A stretch of DNA of 64,000 bases, taken from assembly GCA_016462645.1 (NCBI GenBank), contig JAEMSX010000005.1:1-64000 (forward strand), written 5' to 3'. Each line of letters opens with the position of its first letter. Within the stretch, counting starts at the first letter, position 1. Position numbers and translations under genes: made by a program. The DNA is from Thermoleophilaceae bacterium (lineage in GTDB: Bacteria; Actinomycetota; Thermoleophilia; Solirubrobacterales; JACPNS01). Shown piece by piece: positions 4,075 to 17,164 of this stretch. Under the pieces are notes generated by a model. It was not told the origin of the DNA, made no database searches, and saw nothing but the letters and a program-made list of their open reading frames with translations.

Positions 4075-4590
4075 ATGTTTGAAAAAATCCGCAACCGCGC
4101 TGAGAGCGAAGAGGGCTTCACCCTTATCGAACTCCTCGTGGTCATCCTGATCATCGGCATCCTTGCCGCGATCGCCATTCCGTCATTCCTGAACCAGCGC
4201 TACAAGGGTCAGGACGCATGTGCCAAGTCAATGGTCAAGCAGATGCAGACGGCTGCCAAGACGTACCAGACCGACAACAACACCTACGCCAACATGACGC
4301 TCGGACCGCTCACCGCGATCGAGAGCTCGATCACCGGTTCGACGGCGCAGGGTAACTGTGCCCCGGCCCCCGCGCCGATCGGCACCGCTGCTGCAGGTGG
4401 TATCTGCAACGGCACCACACCGACCGACTCGGTCAGTTACTGCGTAAGTGCTTTGTCGCTGAGCGGCAACACGTTCGCGATCTCCGAGGCTGGTGCCGGC
4501 GTGATCCGAGGCTGCACGATCAAGGCCGACGGAAACGCAGGTGGGTGCAAGGGAACGGCAGGCTCAGCCGCCGCGAACGGCACCTGGTAG
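4075..4590 (+). CDS. pilA: Type IV major pilin PilA (copy 1)
   Basis: Structural pilus subunit. It has a 14-residue charged leader ending in EEG, prepilin peptidase cleavage before F in G^FTLIE, the essential Glu at +5, and a hydrophobic helix of about 24 residues (LLVVILIIGILAAIAIPSFL). The globular part of the 171-residue protein has six cysteines (DAC, GNC, GIC, SYC, RGC, GGC), suggesting three disulphides. The ribosome site AGGAG is well placed and a strong terminator follows, so this gene can be expressed on its own at a high level. The paralogue at 4783 shares the cysteine order and the KGQDACAK segment. Confidence 0.95.
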   Translation: MFEKIRNRAESEEGFTLIELLVVILIIGILAAIAIPSFLNQRYKGQDACAKSMVKQMQTAAKTYQTDNNTYANMTLGPLTAIESSITGSTAQGNCAPAPAPIGTAAAGGICNGTTPTDSVSYCVSALSLSGNTFAISEAGAGVIRGCTIKADGNAGGCKGTAGSAAANGTW

Positions 4591-4762: not shown

Positions 4763-4786
4763 ATGCCGACAAACGATGGACGATGA
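4763..4786 (+). CDS. 7-codon mini-ORF coupled to pilA2
   Basis: ATG 4763 sits 6 bases after GGAG (4754-4757) and encodes MPTNDGR, ending in TGA 4784-4786, which overlaps the pilA2 ATG as ATGA. pilA2 has no closer ribosome site and no alternative in-frame start down to the stop at 4750, so loading at the mini-ORF and re-initiation is the simplest reading. The start region resembles the leader ORF before pilT (shared CCGACAA and a following ATG). Confidence 0.5.
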   Translation: MPTNDGR

Positions 4787-5259
4787 TTCGCGACCGCTCA
4801 CGCAATCTCGGCAGCTCAGAAGGTTTCACGCTCATCGAGCTGCTCGTAGTAATCCTGATTATCGGCGTCCTCGCCGCGATCGCACTACCCGCATTTCTCG
4901 GCCAGCGTTCAAAGGGCCAGGACGCCTGCGCGAAAGCGATGGTCAAGAACATGCAGACCGCGATGATGAGCTACCAGGCGGAGACGGGAAGCTTCGCGAA
5001 CGCATCGCTCCCGTCACTGACGGCGATCGACGCGACGATTGCGGACGGCGGCTGCGGGGCGGCATCGACCTCTCAGATCGGCAGCGCCAACAGTGGACCC
5101 GGAGCCTGCGTCGTCGGCGCTCCCGCTCCTGCCGGCTACTGCATCTCCTACGACTCCGAGTCCGGGAATCGCTTCAGCATGTCCGAGAGCGGAACGGGGA
5201 TCGTCCGTACATGCACGGTGGCCTCGGCCGGCGGCTGCAAGCCATCCGGCCTGTGGTAG
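4783..5259 (+). CDS. pilA: Type IV pilin PilA (copy 2)
   Basis: A second pilin of 158 residues, clearly paralogous to the one at 4075. It has a 14-residue leader ending SSEG, cleavage G^FTLIE with Glu at +5, and an almost identical transmembrane helix with GVLAAIALPAFL. The shared KGQDACAK segment follows, with the same six-cysteine order (DAC, GGC, GAC, GYC, RTC, GGC). It lies after the strong pilA1 terminator, so it needs its own promoter or read-through, and could be a minor or condition-specific subunit. pilD follows after 63 bases. Start choice rests on the leader motif and the ATGA overlap. Confidence 0.92.
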   Translation: MIRDRSRNLGSSEGFTLIELLVVILIIGVLAAIALPAFLGQRSKGQDACAKAMVKNMQTAMMSYQAETGSFANASLPSLTAIDATIADGGCGAASTSQIGSANSGPGACVVGAPAPAGYCISYDSESGNRFSMSESGTGIVRTCTVASAGGCKPSGLW

Positions 5260-10986: not shown

Positions 10987-12162
10987 ATGCAGCTCCCATT
11001 TTCATCCAAGCCCGCTGAGGGCGAAGGCGAAGCCACCGAAGCTCCCGCGTTGTCCAACAACGCGAAGCTTGAGAACGTCTCCGCCGAGTCGATGAACGGC
11101 AAGGTGCGGAGCGAGGGTCTCACGGGCCTCGACGTGTCCGGCACAGGGCTTGCCGCCGCGCGTGTTTCCGACGGACGCATCCGCAGCGCATCGGCAACGA
11201 CGATCGACCCCGGCCTGGTCGTGGACGGCGAGATCGCCGACCCGGCAGGACTCGGCGCAGCGATCTCAGAGTTCTTCACCGCCAACGGCCTTCCGAGCAA
11301 GGTGCGCATGGGTGTCGCCAGTCCGCGCGTAGTGATTCGCACGATCGAGACTCCGGTCATCGCCGACCGCAAGGAGTTCGCTGCGGCGATCCGCTTCCAG
11401 GCCAGCGACCACATCCCGATGCCGCTCGATGAAGCGGTGCTCGACTACCAGGTGCTCGACACGATCCCCGGTCTCGAGACGGGCGACCCGCCGAAGTTCA
11501 GCGTCATGCTCGTCGCGGCCAGCCGCGGCCTGATCGACGGTCTGATGGAGACGTCGCGCCACGCCGGGATCAAACTCCAGGGCGTCGACCTTGCGGCCTT
11601 CAGCCTGATCCGCGTGATGTACCCGGGCGACATCGCCCAGCGCGAAACGATCGCCTATCTGCACTTCGGCGACATGCTCAACGTGACGCTCGCCCAAGGC
11701 CGTGTCTGCAAGTTCACCCGTGCCACGCCGGTCGGTTACGAAGCTCTGATCGCACGACTCTGTGAGCGCGTGAACCTGACGCCGGCGCACGCCCAGATGT
11801 GGCTCGACCACGTCGGACTCGCAGCCCCGATCGAGTCGATCCAGGGCGACCGCGACATCGTTGTGGCCGCGCGCCAGGAACTGACCGACGCCGCAGAGCG
11901 CGTCAGCAACGACGTCACCGCGGCAATCGACTTTCACTCCGTCCAGGACTCGACCGCTCGCGTGAGCCGCATCCTGCTGGCTGGACCGGGGTCGAGCATC
12001 CCGGGTATTGCAGAGACGGTTTCGCAGCGCACCGGTCTTCCGGTCGAGGTTCCTGCGCCGCTCGGCGCGCTTGACGACTCAACGCTTCAGGGCTCGGGAA
12101 TCGACGAGCGTCGTCTGACGCTGGCCGCCGGCCTCGCGATTGAAGAGGTGGTGGCTCAATGA
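10987..12162 (+). CDS. pilM: Type IV pilus actin-like ATPase PilM
   Basis: Cytoplasmic actin/FtsA-fold protein that binds the N-terminus of PilN and links the ATPases to the membrane subcomplex. The 391 residues show the phosphate-1-like GLDVSGTGLAAARVS about 38-52 and the ATP-binding LLAGPGSSIPGI region near 330. An N-terminal extension of about 35 residues precedes the fold. The frame stays open to 10861 but has no earlier start codon; ATG 10987 has GAAGGA directly before it. pilN begins in the stop codon (ATGA). The 180 bases upstream hold no gene I can support. Confidence 0.9.
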   Translation: MQLPFSSKPAEGEGEATEAPALSNNAKLENVSAESMNGKVRSEGLTGLDVSGTGLAAARVSDGRIRSASATTIDPGLVVDGEIADPAGLGAAISEFFTANGLPSKVRMGVASPRVVIRTIETPVIADRKEFAAAIRFQASDHIPMPLDEAVLDYQVLDTIPGLETGDPPKFSVMLVAASRGLIDGLMETSRHAGIKLQGVDLAAFSLIRVMYPGDIAQRETIAYLHFGDMLNVTLAQGRVCKFTRATPVGYEALIARLCERVNLTPAHAQMWLDHVGLAAPIESIQGDRDIVVAARQELTDAAERVSNDVTAAIDFHSVQDSTARVSRILLAGPGSSIPGIAETVSQRTGLPVEVPAPLGALDDSTLQGSGIDERRLTLAAGLAIEEVVAQ

Positions 12163-12905
12163 GGGCCGTAAACCTGATCCCGGAGGAGTTGCGCCCGCGC
12201 GTTCCCGGCGACGGCGATCCGCGCATTGCCTACGGCGTGCTGGGAGGTCTTGCGCTGCTTCTGGTCATGGTGCTCGTCGCGATCCACTACTCGAACGAGC
12301 TCAAGACGATCGAGGACCAGACCGCCGCGATCACCGCGGAGTCCCAGAGCCACCGCGCCCGTGTCGCGACCGTCGCAACCACACCGGACCAGGTCGCGGC
12401 CGACGTGAAGACGCGCACGCTGCTTGTCGGTGGACTTGCCAAGACCCGCTTTCCGTGGGGCGACGCGCTCTACGACCTCTCCCGCGCGATCCCGGAGGAC
12501 ACAACTCTCAACGACATCAACGTGAGCTCGGGGGGCGGCACCGAAGGCGACACCAGCGGCTCGACGATGTCATTGACCGGTTGCACCTCCAGCTGGGTCG
12601 GCTACTCGCGTTTCATGACCTGGCTGAAGACGATGCCCGGAGTCGAGAAGGTTGAGTCGAGCTCGAGTGCGGTCAGCTCTGCCCAGGGCGGCGCCGACGG
12701 CGTCGATCGCACACGCAACTGTGGCCCGGCTCCGCTGTCATTCGCGCTCGAGGTCACTTACTCGCAGCGCAAGATCGACCTGCTCGGACTGCCCAAACCC
12801 GACGCCGGGGCGTCCGGCGCGACGGGCGCGGCTCCGGCTGCCGGCACGCCGGCCGCTGCGACGACGCCTGCACCTGCCCCCGCACCCGCCGGATCGGAGA
12901 ACTGA
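12159..12905 (+). CDS. pilN: Type IV pilus assembly protein PilN
   Basis: A 248-residue single-pass membrane protein. It opens with MRAVNLIPEELRPR, the conserved cytoplasmic PilN motif (NLLP-like) that docks into PilM, followed by a transmembrane helix about 27-45 (VLGGLALLLVMVLVAIHY), a coiled-coil stretch and an extracytoplasmic ferredoxin-like part. The tail is Ala/Pro-rich. Its start overlaps the pilM stop (ATGA), and pilO follows after 6 bases, so the three are translationally linked. Assignment rests on the N-terminal motif and gene order. Confidence 0.88.
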   Translation: MRAVNLIPEELRPRVPGDGDPRIAYGVLGGLALLLVMVLVAIHYSNELKTIEDQTAAITAESQSHRARVATVATTPDQVAADVKTRTLLVGGLAKTRFPWGDALYDLSRAIPEDTTLNDINVSSGGGTEGDTSGSTMSLTGCTSSWVGYSRFMTWLKTMPGVEKVESSSSAVSSAQGGADGVDRTRNCGPAPLSFALEVTYSQRKIDLLGLPKPDAGASGATGAAPAAGTPAAATTPAPAPAPAGSEN

Positions 12906-12911
12906 TCGACC

Positions 12912-13844
12912 ATGGGTATGACTGAACGCGATCAGAAAGTTTTGGCCATCGTCATCGCAGTCGCGGTGCTTGGCGGTTACTGGTTCCTCGTGCTGGGCAA
13001 GAAGCGCTCCGCGATCAAGGAGGCGCAGACCGCGCAGGTCACCGCACAAGCCGACCTCGATGCCGCGAAGGCTGCAGAGCAGGAAGCGCTGAGCGTGGCG
13101 AAGGTCAAGCCCGCCGCGTACTCACGCCTGCTTCGCCTCGGCAAGGCGATCCCTGCCGACAAGGACTTCGAGAGCCTGCTCGTCCAGGTCAACGACATCA
13201 GCGTCGACTCGAAGGTCAGCTTCGTGAGTCTCTCGGCCGCCGAAGGCGCAGCAGGCGCTGCGGGCGCCGGGGCGACCGGAACCACCACTTGTGACGCGAC
13301 CGGAGCAACCGCCGCCGCGCCGACGACCGCCCCGACCGGGGCGACCGGGACGACGGGCGTCTCCGGCTCAACAGCAGAGACCTGGGTCGGACGCGATCGT
13401 GACAAGGCCAAGAACGCCGCCGCGGCCAGCGATGGCGCCAATGCAGCCACCGAGGCGCAGGCAAACGCTGTCAGTTGCGAGGACTCACCTTCGCTGACCG
13501 ATATCGCGGCGACTGCCGCAGGCCTGCAGTCGGAGGCCTACACCTTCACTTTCACGGGCAGCTTCTACAACCTCAAGGATGTCTACAACGGCCTGCTCGA
13601 CATGGTCACGGTGAACAACGGCAAGGTCAAGGTGACCGGCCGCCTGCTCGACATCAACTCGATCGCGATGAGTGTGTCGACCTTCCCAGAGCTCAACGCC
13701 ACGGTGCAGATGACTGGATACAAGCTGCCAGTCGCCACCACGACCAGCGGCGCTCAGGTGCCCCCGGTTTCCGGCGGCAGCCTCGCCGCCGAGGCGACCC
13801 AGACAGCCAACGACGAATCCGCCAACGCGGCTGCGGCACAGTAG
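12912..13844 (+). CDS. pilO: PilO-like type IV pilus protein
   Basis: A 310-residue single-pass protein with a transmembrane helix about 12-29 (VLAIVIAVAVLGGYWFLVLG), a following coiled coil (about 33-65) and an extracytoplasmic domain interrupted by an Ala/Gly/Thr-rich insert about 110-160. It lies after pilN in the usual order, and partners PilN in the inner-membrane alignment complex of studied systems. The low-complexity insert is unusual for PilO. A second ATG at 12918 is possible. The next gene starts 2 bases after the stop. Confidence 0.8.
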   Translation: MGMTERDQKVLAIVIAVAVLGGYWFLVLGKKRSAIKEAQTAQVTAQADLDAAKAAEQEALSVAKVKPAAYSRLLRLGKAIPADKDFESLLVQVNDISVDSKVSFVSLSAAEGAAGAAGAGATGTTTCDATGATAAAPTTAPTGATGTTGVSGSTAETWVGRDRDKAKNAAAASDGANAATEAQANAVSCEDSPSLTDIAATAAGLQSEAYTFTFTGSFYNLKDVYNGLLDMVTVNNGKVKVTGRLLDINSIAMSVSTFPELNATVQMTGYKLPVATTTSGAQVPPVSGGSLAAEATQTANDESANAAAAQ

Positions 13845-13846
13845 GC

Positions 13847-14680
13847 ATGAACGGCAAAGACCTCAACAAGCAGCTCGACGCGCTCAAGCGCCAGGCGACG
13901 GATCTTGTCCGCGAACTTCACGCGCGCAAGCTCGCGATCCCTGCGGGCGCGCTGCTGCTGGCGATCCTCGCAGCGGTGTTTCTGCTGCCGCAGTCTTCAT
14001 CCCCGCCCGCAGCCCCGCCGACAGCGACTGCACCGCCTGTGCAGTCGAAGGTCGCGCGCGTCGCTCAGGTTTCGCTGATCGAGCCGAGCAGCCTGGACGA
14101 AGATGTCCCACTGGCCAATTCCGAGGACCCGTTCATCGGCAAGTCCGGCTACAAGTGCTCCAAGGTCGGCTCCAATCCGAAGACTTATGACTGCATCGTG
14201 TCCGATCTCAAGGTGCGCATCATCTGCACCGGTGAGACCGGAAGCGGCCCATGCGCCGAAGGTGGCGGTGCAACCGCCGGCGGAGGCGCCTCCAGCGGAA
14301 CAGGTTCCGGCGGAGACGGCGGTGGCGCGACCGGAGGCGGCGACTCGGGCGGCGGCGACTCGGGCGGCGGCGACAGCGGCGACTCCAAGAGCTACTACTA
14401 CGTGGTGACGGTCTCGATCGACGGCACGACGAAGAAGAACGTGGTCGCCGGCACCGAGCTGCCCAAGACTTCTGACGCGCTGGTGGTCTACGCCGGCACC
14501 AACGACGCGAAAAACAAGGCCGTGTTCATCTCCGGGGACGGCGTGATCGTCACCGGCGTCAAGGTCGACGCGACGTTCGGCAGCTTCTCGCTGAAGAAGG
14601 GCGAGACCGCCACGCTCACCGACGCCAACGGCGCAGAGCACAAGCTGACGCTCAAAAGCATCTCCAAGGTCACGAAGTGA
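13847..14680 (+). CDS. Pilus-locus single-pass protein with DPF motif
   Basis: A 277-residue protein of no family I can name. Visible parts: a short cytoplasmic N-terminus, a transmembrane helix about 25-45 (IPAGALLLAILAAVFLLP), a motif SEDPFIGKSGY about 92-102, two nearby cysteines, a Gly/Ser/Asp linker about 139-181, and a C-terminal beta-type domain ending KLTLKSISKVTK. RDPF-type motifs are typical of PilP, and the next gene has SRDPFAAKGY and a similar tail, so I infer PilP-like partners of PilNO. The frame extends upstream inside pilO, but ATG 13847, 2 bases after the pilO stop, fits the operon. The next gene starts in its stop codon (GTGA). Confidence 0.7.
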   Translation: MNGKDLNKQLDALKRQATDLVRELHARKLAIPAGALLLAILAAVFLLPQSSSPPAAPPTATAPPVQSKVARVAQVSLIEPSSLDEDVPLANSEDPFIGKSGYKCSKVGSNPKTYDCIVSDLKVRIICTGETGSGPCAEGGGATAGGGASSGTGSGGDGGGATGGGDSGGGDSGGGDSGDSKSYYYVVTVSIDGTTKKNVVAGTELPKTSDALVVYAGTNDAKNKAVFISGDGVIVTGVKVDATFGSFSLKKGETATLTDANGAEHKLTLKSISKVTK

Positions 14681-15900
14681 AGCTGAAGACCGGCAACCCT
14701 CGGGTGCGCGGTCCCCGTCGTAACGCCTCCAGCGACCGGCGCCCCGCGCAACGCGTCGAACCGGCGACCTTCGCCTGGATCGAGCCGCTTGCCGACGTCA
14801 ACCCGGTTGTCGTCGAGCGCGAAATCGTCAACGAGCGCAACGTGGACCGTCCGGTCTATGTCGATCGCACGGTCGAGGTTGAGAAGATCGTCGAGGTCGA
14901 GAAGATCGTTGAAGTCGCGCGTCCGGTGGACCGCATCGTCGAGCGTGAAGTCTTCATCGAGCGCCCCGTCGAAGTCGAGAAGATCGTCGAGGTCGAGAAG
15001 ATCGTCGAGAAGCCGATCATCGTCGAGAAGGAAGTCTTCGTAGAGAAGGAAGTGTTCGTCGACCGCCCGGTTGAGGACAAGCCGAAGGTGGCTGCGAAAG
15101 CAGCGGTTGGAGCCGTCGCGCTGGATGAAGCCGCAAAGGACTCCAAGAAGACCAGGACGGACAAGCAGCCGAAGGCGATCATCGTCGGCCGCGGACCGTC
15201 GCTGGCGACGAAGATCGGCCGCGTCATGCCCAAGCCGATGCCGGTACTCGCAGGTGCCGCCTCGCTGCTTGCCGTGATCGTGCTGATGACTTTGATTTCT
15301 CCCTCCGGCGACAATGCGAATGCCGAGCGCGCCAAAACAAAGGTCGCGGCCGCGAGCGCCACGGAGCCGACTGCAAAACTCACGCTCGACGACTCGCCCG
15401 GAAAGCTCCGCGGCAAGAGCCGTGACCCGTTTGCCGCCAAGGGATACGTCGCACCGCCGACGGCCGCCACCGGTGCAGATCCAAAGGCCAAGGCCGAGAA
15501 GGCCAAGCAGGCCAAGGCCGCCGCCGCAACGCGTGCCGGCGCTCCGGCAGCTGCGGCCACCTCGCTCTTCACCGCGAATCTCACCACTTACTCCTCTTAC
15601 ACACCCTGGAAGAAGGCGCGCAAGCGTGCCGGGGGGTGGCTCGACTTTGACGCCAAACCGACGGTCAAGGTGCTGTCGGTGGGCAAGAGCAGCGTTGTTC
15701 TCTTCGTCGTCACGGATGTCGAAGTGATCAAGGAGAAGAGCGCGCACATCTCCTACAACAAGCCGATCCGCCAGGTCAAGCTTGCCAAGGGTGGCGTTGT
15801 TCGCTTCGCCGACTACCGCGACATCCAGGGTGACGACGTCACCTACACGATTCGCTATGACGGCAGCGAGAAGATCAAACTCTCAGCAGTGACCAAGTAG
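14677..15900 (+). CDS. Pilus-locus protein with VEK/VEV repeats and DPF motif
   Basis: A 407-residue protein starting at a GTG that overlaps the previous stop (GTGA). It has a basic N-terminus, a cytoplasmic stretch about 45-135 of charged V-E-K/R repeats such as VEVEKIVEVEKIVEV, a transmembrane helix about 188-207 (MPVLAGAASLLAVIVLMTLI), the motif SRDPFAAKGY about 248-257, an Ala/Lys-rich linker and a C-terminal domain ending EKIKLSAVTK. The DPF motif and the tail match the preceding protein, suggesting duplication with an added N-terminal stalk. It closes the pilus locus. A scaffold or alignment role at the pilus base is inference; I know no named family. Confidence 0.7.
   Translation: MKLKTGNPRVRGPRRNASSDRRPAQRVEPATFAWIEPLADVNPVVVEREIVNERNVDRPVYVDRTVEVEKIVEVEKIVEVARPVDRIVEREVFIERPVEVEKIVEVEKIVEKPIIVEKEVFVEKEVFVDRPVEDKPKVAAKAAVGAVALDEAAKDSKKTRTDKQPKAIIVGRGPSLATKIGRVMPKPMPVLAGAASLLAVIVLMTLISPSGDNANAERAKTKVAAASATEPTAKLTLDDSPGKLRGKSRDPFAAKGYVAPPTAATGADPKAKAEKAKQAKAAAATRAGAPAAAATSLFTANLTTYSSYTPWKKARKRAGGWLDFDAKPTVKVLSVGKSSVVLFVVTDVEVIKEKSAHISYNKPIRQVKLAKGGVVRFADYRDIQGDDVTYTIRYDGSEKIKLSAVTK
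14811..15078 (+). repeat. VEK/VEV coding repeat
   Basis: Codons for E-V-E-K-I-V and close variants recur through about 90 residues, seen in DNA as repeated GTCGAGAAGATCGT units. The periodic Val/Ile with alternating Glu/Lys resembles the charged valine-rich repeats of eukaryotic alveolins and other filament-forming proteins. Homology is not claimed. Confidence 0.8.
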
Positions 15901-15946: not shown

Positions 15947-17164
15947 ATGCATTTGCGCTTCACAACCGCCGGCGAATCGCACGGCCCCGGGCTGATCGCC
16001 GTGATCGAGGGCGTTCCGGCCGGCTTGCAGTTGACGCCGGAGGACCTCAATCACGACCTCGCGCGCCGCCAGCTCGGCTACGGCCGCGGCGGCCGCATGA
16101 AAATCGAGAAGGACGCGGCGGTCGTCGTGTCGGGAATCCGCCACGGAAAGACGCTCGGAACACCGATCGCGCTCTCGATCCCGAACAAGGATTACGCGAA
16201 CTGGGAAGATCGCATGAACCCGTGGCCGGTCGATGCAGAGGTCGCCGCGGTGCACCTGCCGCGCCCCGGTCACGCAGACCTGCCCGGCGTACAGAAGTAC
16301 GGCCACGATGACGTGCGCAACGTGCTCGAGCGCGCCAGCGCCCGCGAGACCACCGCCCGCGTGGCAGTCGGCGCGATCGCCCGCGCGATTCTGCGCGACC
16401 TCGGCGTGACGATCCGCAGCCACGTCACGCGCATCGGCGAGGTGGACGCACCGGCACCAGAGCGCCCGCGCCAGATCGACGACTTCGAGGGTGTCGATGA
16501 GTCGCCGGTGCGCTGTCTCGACAAGGAGACCGAGCGCCTGATGATCCGCCACATCGACGTTCAGCGCAAGGCCAACGAGACGCTCGGCGGCATCTTCGAG
16601 GTGCTCGTCTTCGGTCTCGTTCCCGGCATCGGCTCCTACTCAAGCTGGGACAGCCGCATCGAGGGCCGTCTGGCGCAGGCCTTCTGCTCGATCCAGGCGA
16701 TCAAGGGCGTTGGCTTCGGCGACGGCTTCAAGCTGACCGGGATCCCCGGCTCTCAGGCGCACGACGAGATCTTCCCCGGTGGTGAAGGCCCCACCGAGGC
16801 ATTCGGTTTCCACCGCACGACCAACCACGCCGGCGGCATCGAGGGCGGCATGACCAACGGCGAGACCGTGGTGGTCAAGGGCGCGATGAAACCGCTCCCG
16901 ACGCTCACCAAGCCGCTGCGCAGCGTTGATATCACCACCGGCGAAGAGACGGCGGCGTTGAAGGAGCGCACTGATTCGTGCACGGTGCCCGCGGCTGGCG
17001 TTGTCGGGGAGGCGATGGCCGCGCTGGTGTTCGCGAACGCCTATCTCGAGAAGTTCGGCGGAGACAACATCGCCGACACCAAGCTCGCGCTGTCCGCCTA
17101 TCAGGACAGAATTGCCGGCAAGGTGTTTTTTCAAAAAGCCGGTTTTTCGCCGGAGAGTCACTAG
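15947..17164 (+). CDS. aroC: Chorismate synthase
   Basis: Catalyses 5-enolpyruvylshikimate-3-phosphate to chorismate using reduced FMN, the last step of the shikimate pathway. The 405 residues match the family length. The N-terminal signature (GESHGPGLIAVIEGVPAG), the RQLGYGRGGRMKIEKD stretch, the ASARETTARVAVG motif and the C-terminal EHA-like NHAGGIEGGMTNGE segment are all present. It starts a shikimate cluster: the fused aroKB gene begins 4 bases after its stop and aroQ follows. A TAGGCT box 7 bases before the ATG suggests a leaderless message. Confidence 0.97.
   Translation: MHLRFTTAGESHGPGLIAVIEGVPAGLQLTPEDLNHDLARRQLGYGRGGRMKIEKDAAVVVSGIRHGKTLGTPIALSIPNKDYANWEDRMNPWPVDAEVAAVHLPRPGHADLPGVQKYGHDDVRNVLERASARETTARVAVGAIARAILRDLGVTIRSHVTRIGEVDAPAPERPRQIDDFEGVDESPVRCLDKETERLMIRHIDVQRKANETLGGIFEVLVFGLVPGIGSYSSWDSRIEGRLAQAFCSIQAIKGVGFGDGFKLTGIPGSQAHDEIFPGGEGPTEAFGFHRTTNHAGGIEGGMTNGETVVVKGAMKPLPTLTKPLRSVDITTGEETAALKERTDSCTVPAAGVVGEAMAALVFANAYLEKFGGDNIADTKLALSAYQDRIAGKVFFQKAGFSPESH

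What the first reader, a model, noticed from the sequence alone, without database searches (positions are those of the whole stretch)
13847..15900. Two tandem unnamed pilus proteins share a DPF motif and tail and may replace PilP
The last two genes of the pilus locus encode single-pass proteins with SEDPFIGKSGY and SRDPFAAKGY after the membrane helix, and similar C-terminal ends (KLTLKSISKVTK and EKIKLSAVTK). They overlap by GTGA and follow pilO directly. PilP of diderm bacteria has an RDPF-type motif but bridges to PilQ, which a monoderm lacks. They look like a duplicated, diverged PilP-like component with a new partner, perhaps the cell wall.
Basis: partly seen in the sequence, partly recalled or inferred. 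Interest (0 to 1): 0.62.

Follow-up and report, generated by a model that had tools for sequence, protein, structure and literature searches.

The report
PilP-like pilus subunits without outer membrane
In bacteria that have no outer membrane, the pilus gene cluster still carries a relative of PilP, the subunit thought to exist only to reach the outer-membrane pore, and this genus has added a second protein of the same design, which calls PilP's textbook role into question.

Summary
The two genes are real and lie where stated, between pilO and aroC, overlapping by GTGA.

The first (X1) follows pilO in all 36 Solirubrobacterales pilus loci whose contig reaches that far. Its Pro-Phe pair is invariant in a 33-member alignment.

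In other Actinomycetota classes the same slot, pilO-[X]-aroC, holds a membrane-anchored DPF protein whose C-terminal domain is PilP-like. NCBIfam pilP_fam matches 12 of 30 members (best 1.4e-5), and profile comparison with solved PilPs gives P = 2.4e-5. None of 19 genomes checked has a secretin; none of 12 has Omp85. The motif sits 42-57 residues outside the membrane (median 49) in every X1 measured.

The window's X1 C-domain is weakly but significantly similar to that PilP-type domain (P = 4.7e-4, above 75 natural decoys). X1 is best read as a diverged PilP equivalent.

The second (X2) occurs only in this genus (5 of 5; 0 of 146 other genomes of the order). It has the same layout plus a cytoplasmic extension, and its C-domain is probably homologous to the X1 family (P about 1e-4), though not closest to its neighbour.

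The shared tail is coincidental. A cell-wall partner is untested.

The parts
13847..14680 (+). X1: PilP-slot protein, 277 aa. Short cytoplasmic N-terminus, one membrane helix (res. 29-47), DPF motif (94-96), genus-specific 4-Cys hairpin (104-136), Gly/Ser linker, C-terminal beta domain (about 180-277)
   Evidence: (AF2 C-domain pLDDT 94-98)
14126..14134 (+). DPF codons of X1 (residues 94-96)
   Evidence: P-F invariant in 33 orthologues; D/N-P-F 42-57 residues after the membrane helix in 48 X1 sequences
14677..15900 (+). X2: genus-specific second DPF protein, 407 aa. Long cytoplasmic N-terminus with variable VEK repeats, one membrane helix (res. 190-208), RDPFAA (249-254), Lys/Ala linker, C-terminal beta-rich domain (about 294-407)
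15424..15432 (+). DPF codons of X2 (residues 250-252)
   Evidence: RDPFAA invariant in 5 X2 orthologues; 42-46 residues after the membrane helix
14677..14680 (+). GTGA overlap of the X1 stop and X2 start; same 4-base overlap in four genus relatives
12912..13844 (+). pilO, directly upstream; weak Pfam T2SSM/PilO matches below cut-off
12159..12905 (+). pilN
   Evidence: Pfam PilN E 0.002, below cut-off
10987..12162 (+). pilM
   Evidence: Pfam PilM_2 E 1e-22
15947..17164 (+). aroC, which closes the conserved pilMNO-X-aro block

Best explanation
X1 is the Actinomycetota equivalent of PilP: a fourth, membrane-anchored subunit of the PilM-PilN-PilO alignment complex. Mechanism (inferred, apart from the sequence features): the helix anchors it next to PilN and PilO; [quoted passage not shown] a flexible linker then carries a small beta domain outward, to stabilise the cage and contact something at the pilus exit. 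That something cannot be PilQ here, because there is no secretin or outer membrane. X2 is a second, genus-specific subunit with the same anchor-DPF-linker-beta-domain design. Its long cytoplasmic N-terminus could also touch PilM or the motor ATPases. It probably derives from the same family. Shown: slot conservation, motif conservation and spacing, PilP-type domain in the slot in other classes, absence of secretin. Moderately supported: X1 C-domain related to the PilP-type domain; X2 C-domain related to the X1 family. Inferred: DPF docking and any wall contact.
For: Slot: X1 follows pilO in 36 of 36 Solirubrobacterales loci whose contig reaches that far, and aroC follows in most. In 11 of 11 loci sampled from other Actinomycetota classes a DPF protein follows pilO, and aroC follows in 10 of 11. 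Motif: P and F invariant in 33 X1 and in 30 proteins of the other classes. Helix-to-motif distance is 42-57 in 48 X1, median 49 in the other classes and 42-46 in five X2. Solved Myxococcus PilP has KRDPFRSP ahead of its beta domain. PilP-type domain in the other classes: NCBIfam pilP_fam in 12 of 30 members, best 1.4e-5; Pfam PilP in 3, best 0.003, and T2SSC in 1; profile comparison with solved PilPs P = 2.4e-5, and with a smaller set score 29.8 against shuffled maximum 16.4. Genus X1 C-domain versus that domain: P = 4.7e-4, score 23.9, 75 natural decoys at most 15.8, 100 shuffles at most 20.9. X2 versus X1 family: P = 1.6e-4 (9.9e-5 without genus rows), score 28.3 against natural decoys at most 17.5 and shuffles at most 17.1. 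No secretin in 19 genomes, no Omp85 in 12.
Against: The whole X1 family (42 sequences) does not match PilP or the other-class domain by profile (scores 10.2 and 9.4, background). Only the genus subset does, and five subsets were tried. The confident X1 C-domain model has no solved-structure match at E <= 0.001, and PilP is not among the 50 best listed. No X1 protein matches Pfam or NCBIfam PilP. X1 has a membrane helix where PilP has a lipid anchor. X2 could not be folded (mean pLDDT 37) and its C-domain does not match the genus X1 (score 10.7). DPF docking on PilN/PilO is analogy only.
Confidence: 0.66

Rival explanations
1. X2 is unrelated to X1 by descent: an independent single-pass protein that acquired the same DPF docking motif convergently, so the two compete for or share one PilN/PilO surface.
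For: BLASTP finds nothing; X2 C-domain does not match the neighbouring X1; X2 fold not predictable; DPF is a short motif that could arise twice.
Against: X2 C-domain versus the X1 family scores P about 1e-4, above 55 natural and 100 shuffled decoys; identical architecture and helix-to-motif distance; adjacent translationally coupled genes in all 5 genomes.
Confidence: 0.3
2. X1 is not PilP-derived: a Solirubrobacterales-specific membrane protein replaced PilP in the slot, keeping only a DPF docking motif by domain shuffling; the C-terminal domain is a new beta domain.
For: The whole X1 family does not match PilP; no solved fold match, the best being an FHA domain at E 0.046. In another family of the phylum the slot protein ends in Asp-rich calcium-repeat-like sequence without the PilP-type domain (L105, L108), so C-domains can be exchanged there.
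Against: Genus X1 C-domain versus the PilP-type domain P = 4.7e-4, above all decoys; same slot, anchor and motif spacing.
Confidence: 0.25
3. X1 and X2 are accessory pilus proteins (regulatory or adhesion-related) not part of the PilMNO complex; co-location reflects only operon membership.
For: No interaction data; X2 is lineage-specific.
Against: X1 is as universal as PilM/N/O in the loci sampled and sits in the PilP position; a motif at fixed membrane distance argues for a structural role.
Confidence: 0.08

Closest known systems
PilP of diderm type IVa pili (Pfam PF04351; NCBIfam TIGR03021 pilP_fam)
   Same: Gene slot right after pilO; DPF-type motif between membrane anchor and a small C-terminal beta domain (KRDPFRSP in Myxococcus PilP). 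Other-class slot proteins match pilP_fam.
   Different: Membrane helix instead of a lipid anchor; no secretin partner; X1 itself matches neither family model and has extra strands and inserts; second copy X2 in this genus.
GspC (T2SS), HR domain (Pfam PF11356 T2SSC; NF041515 GspC_delta)
   Same: Single membrane helix, linker, small beta domain; one other-class member matches each model (0.018 and 6e-4).
   Different: GspC binds a secretin through the HR domain (own knowledge); none here. X1 and X2 do not match.
Enlarged PilO of Streptococcus sanguinis type IV pili (PMC6916266)
   Same: A monoderm pilus with an extra extracytoplasmic part on the PilNO complex, proposed speculatively to reach peptidoglycan.
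   Different: There the extra part is fused to PilO and PilP is reported absent; here a separate PilP-slot protein exists.

Membership tests
PilP (as a member), X1 | Match to PilP family models (PF04351, TIGR03021) over the curated cut-off | tested here: not met
   No PilP match for X1 or its 32 relatives; none over cut-off in 247 phylum genomes. Other-class slot proteins match only weakly: PF04351 best 0.003 in 3 members, pilP_fam best 1.4e-5 in 12 of 30; the one member shown in full is below the pilP_fam cut-off.
PilP (as a member), X1 | C-terminal HR-type beta domain | tested here: inconclusive
   Genus X1 versus other-class PilP-type domain P = 4.7e-4; whole X1 family versus PilP at background; Foldseek best 50 lack PilP.
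PilP (as a member), X1 | Position after pilO in pilMNOP and ahead of aro genes | tested here: met
   The proteobacterial pilMNOPQ-aroKB order is own knowledge.
PilP (as a member), X1 | DPF-like motif between membrane anchor and C-domain | tested here: met
   Not described as a PilP feature in the held library.
PilP (as a member), X1 | Lipoprotein anchor | tested here: not met
   Membrane helix 29-47, no cysteine near it.
PilP (as a member), X1 | Binds PilNO through its N-terminal region and the secretin PilQ through its C-domain | not testable with these tools
   PilNO binding untested. No secretin found in this genome or 18 others, so PilQ binding cannot apply.
X1 family, X2 as paralogue | Helix, then DPF at 42-57 residues, then linker, then homologous C-domain | tested here: inconclusive
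   Layout and spacing met; C-domain P about 1e-4 but no match to the neighbouring X1; structure prediction failed.

The most novel reading that the evidence does not exclude
PilP is not primarily a secretin linker. Across the monoderm Actinomycetota a DPF motif at fixed height (about 49 residues) docks a PilP-like subunit on PilN/PilO, while the outward domain is exchangeable (PilP-type, X1-type, calcium-repeat-like) and has been re-aimed at the cell wall or pilus. In this genus the complex carries two such subunits at once, one of which also reaches into the cytoplasm.
Probability: 0.35. Interest if true: 0.7.

Novelty: new variant of a known kind. Interest (0 to 1): 0.52.

Why it matters
Reviews state that PilP is absent from monoderms, and that this is logical because PilP links the assembly complex to the secretin (PMC6916266, from S. 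sanguinis). A PilP-type protein in the PilP slot across many Actinomycetota in which no secretin was found says the subunit has a job that does not need an outer membrane, such as holding PilN/PilO together. It also gives a testable docking motif and naturally secretin-free systems in which to study it.

Tried and rejected
Shared C-terminal tail as evidence of common origin: rejected, because X2 orthologues do not keep it.

Pfam PilP hits in phylum genomes: the three frames read are dihydroxyacetone-kinase-like proteins, not pilus genes (naming from own knowledge).

Whole X1 family versus PilP by profile: null. L051, which looked intermediate to the eye, is not significant (score 16.2).

AF2 model of the X2 C-terminal part from three sequences: unusable, so no fold search was run on it.

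X1 matches in other orders of the class and in G016 (L165-L170): no pilMNO beside them, treated as chance matches to helix and linker.

X2 match in G753 (E 0.0076): the long frames around it are arginine- or acid-rich and do not look like X2, so it was set aside.

PDB sequence searches: the X1 profile touches Myxococcus PilP over its DPF segment, but E = 3.7.

A PilP set from diderm genomes through Omnitrophota/Planctomycetota loci gave no PilP, so solved PilP sequences were used. The query for that search was a P. aeruginosa PilP fragment recalled from memory, used only as bait.

Full report
**What is there.** The window is in a 2.6 Mb draft genome (82% complete). Named relatives of the genus are uncultured Solirubrobacterales/Actinomycetota MAGs. 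The locus reads pilB (partial)-pilT-pilC-pilA-pilA-pilD-three minor-pilin-like genes-pilM-pilN-pilO-X1-X2-aroC-aroK/B (names other than pilM/N/O from own reading of the translations). X1 (13847-14680) starts two bases after pilO; X2 (14677-15900) overlaps it by GTGA. The overlap is kept in four genus relatives.

**Conservation of X1.** A PilM-based scan of named genomes gave 40 Solirubrobacterales-type pilus loci. X1 follows pilO in 36; the other four contigs end in or near pilM-pilO. In an alignment of 33 X1 proteins only P95 and F96 are invariant. The [D/N]PF motif lies 42-57 residues after the membrane helix in 48 sequences although the linker sequence is unrelated. Outside the genus, X1 has a conserved cysteine pair in the C-domain; the window's genus has lost it and instead has four conserved cysteines just after DPF.

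**X2.** X2 was found in all five genus genomes and in none of 146 other genomes of the order. A profile of its C-terminal part over 299 genomes of the class gave four genus genomes and one weak hit that was set aside. RDPFAA is invariant. The cytoplasmic part has two conserved patches (EP[AS]TFAW[IV][ED]PL and [AV]I[IV]GRGP) separated by VEK-type repeats whose number varies and which G004 lacks. The X2 tail is not conserved, so the 'similar tail' of the finding is coincidence.

**X1 against X2.** BLASTP sees nothing. With 15 X1 sequences hhalign gave P = 0.006; with 42 it gave P = 1.6e-4, probability 51%, score 28.3. One hundred column shuffles reached at most 17.1, and 55 windows of real neighbouring proteins at most 17.5. 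Without the genus rows it is P = 9.9e-5, whereas the genus X1 alone gives background. So common origin is likely, but it is old or X1 has since diverged.

**Link to PilP.** The X1 profile picked up DPF proteins in other classes of the phylum. A search with one of them found matches in 91 of 297 phylum genomes. In the 11 loci from other classes whose surroundings I read, the protein follows pilO, and in 10 of them aroC follows. Most of these proteins carry a domain of about 65 residues. NCBIfam pilP_fam matches 12 of 30 (best 1.4e-5). Pfam PilP matches 3 and T2SSC 1. Profile comparison with solved PilPs gives P = 2.4e-5. The slot therefore holds a PilP-type protein in these lineages. The whole X1 family does not match that domain or PilP. 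The X1 of the window's genus does match the domain: P = 4.7e-4, 28% identity over 50 columns, above 75 natural decoys and 100 shuffles. Five subsets were tried, so the corrected value is about 0.002. I read X1 as a diverged PilP equivalent with an insert and extra strands.

**Structure.** AF2 on 33 sequences models the X1 C-domain at pLDDT 94-98 as an all-beta domain. Foldseek against solved structures finds nothing at E <= 0.001; the best is an FHA domain (0.046) and PilP is not in the 50 shown. The X2 model failed.

**No outer membrane.** Secretin (PF00263) was not found in 19 genomes, including the window's, nor Omp85 in 12; both searches ring in diderm controls. The window's own genome is incomplete, but several of the others are over 95% complete.

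**Mechanism.** In P. [quoted passage not shown] The DPF of Myxococcus PilP lies ahead of the beta domain. By analogy the fixed-distance DPF of X1 and X2 should dock on PilN/PilO; this is inference. The outward partner is unknown. Candidates are the cell wall, the pilus shaft or the platform.

**Literature.** PilP is described as absent in the monoderm S. sanguinis, with its absence called logical without a secretin (PMC6916266). Litorilinea (Chloroflexota) is reported to lack pilP, pilQ and pilM (PMC13319060). A broad filament survey treats pilP as an accessory gene of type IVa systems (PMC6668835). I found no held paper on a PilP in Actinomycetota or on the DPF motif. The library lacks most subscription papers.

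**Verdict.** The PilP idea is supported for X1 at the level of slot, motif and, moderately, domain. X2 is a genus-specific probable paralogue. The wall partner is open.

Noticed in passing
L025:2772-4250(-), L027:6361-7854(+), L030:1583-2938(+); also L063:10601-12028 and L075:6873-8495: In some relatives (Thermoleophilaceae-type loci) the slot between X1 and aroC, which X2 holds in this genus, carries a secreted-looking protein with an IPT/TIG-like start and Asp-rich calcium-repeat-like sequence. A candidate partner of X1.
   Followed up: partly
L105:1495-2076, L108:85-904, L164:3997-4851(-): In one other Actinomycetota family the PilP-slot DPF protein (read in L105 and L108) ends in Asp-rich DSDGDG repeats with no PilP-type domain, as if the outward domain had been exchanged or fused with such a repeat protein.
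   Followed up: partly
window 14156-14254: X1 of this genus has four conserved cysteines (residues 104, 116, 127, 136) around predicted strands right after DPF, and lacks the two C-domain cysteines that the rest of the order keeps.
   Followed up: partly
window 14800-15080: VEK/IVE repeats in the cytoplasmic part of X2; repeat number differs between species of the genus and G004 has none.
   Followed up: partly
window 4075-4590 and 4783-5259: Two tandem pilA-like pilin genes with near-identical N-termini, possibly two major pilins.
   Followed up: no
window 14488-15747(-): A 419-aa antisense open frame over X1/X2, probably a by-product of high G+C and the repeats; no evidence seen that it is a gene.
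   Followed up: no
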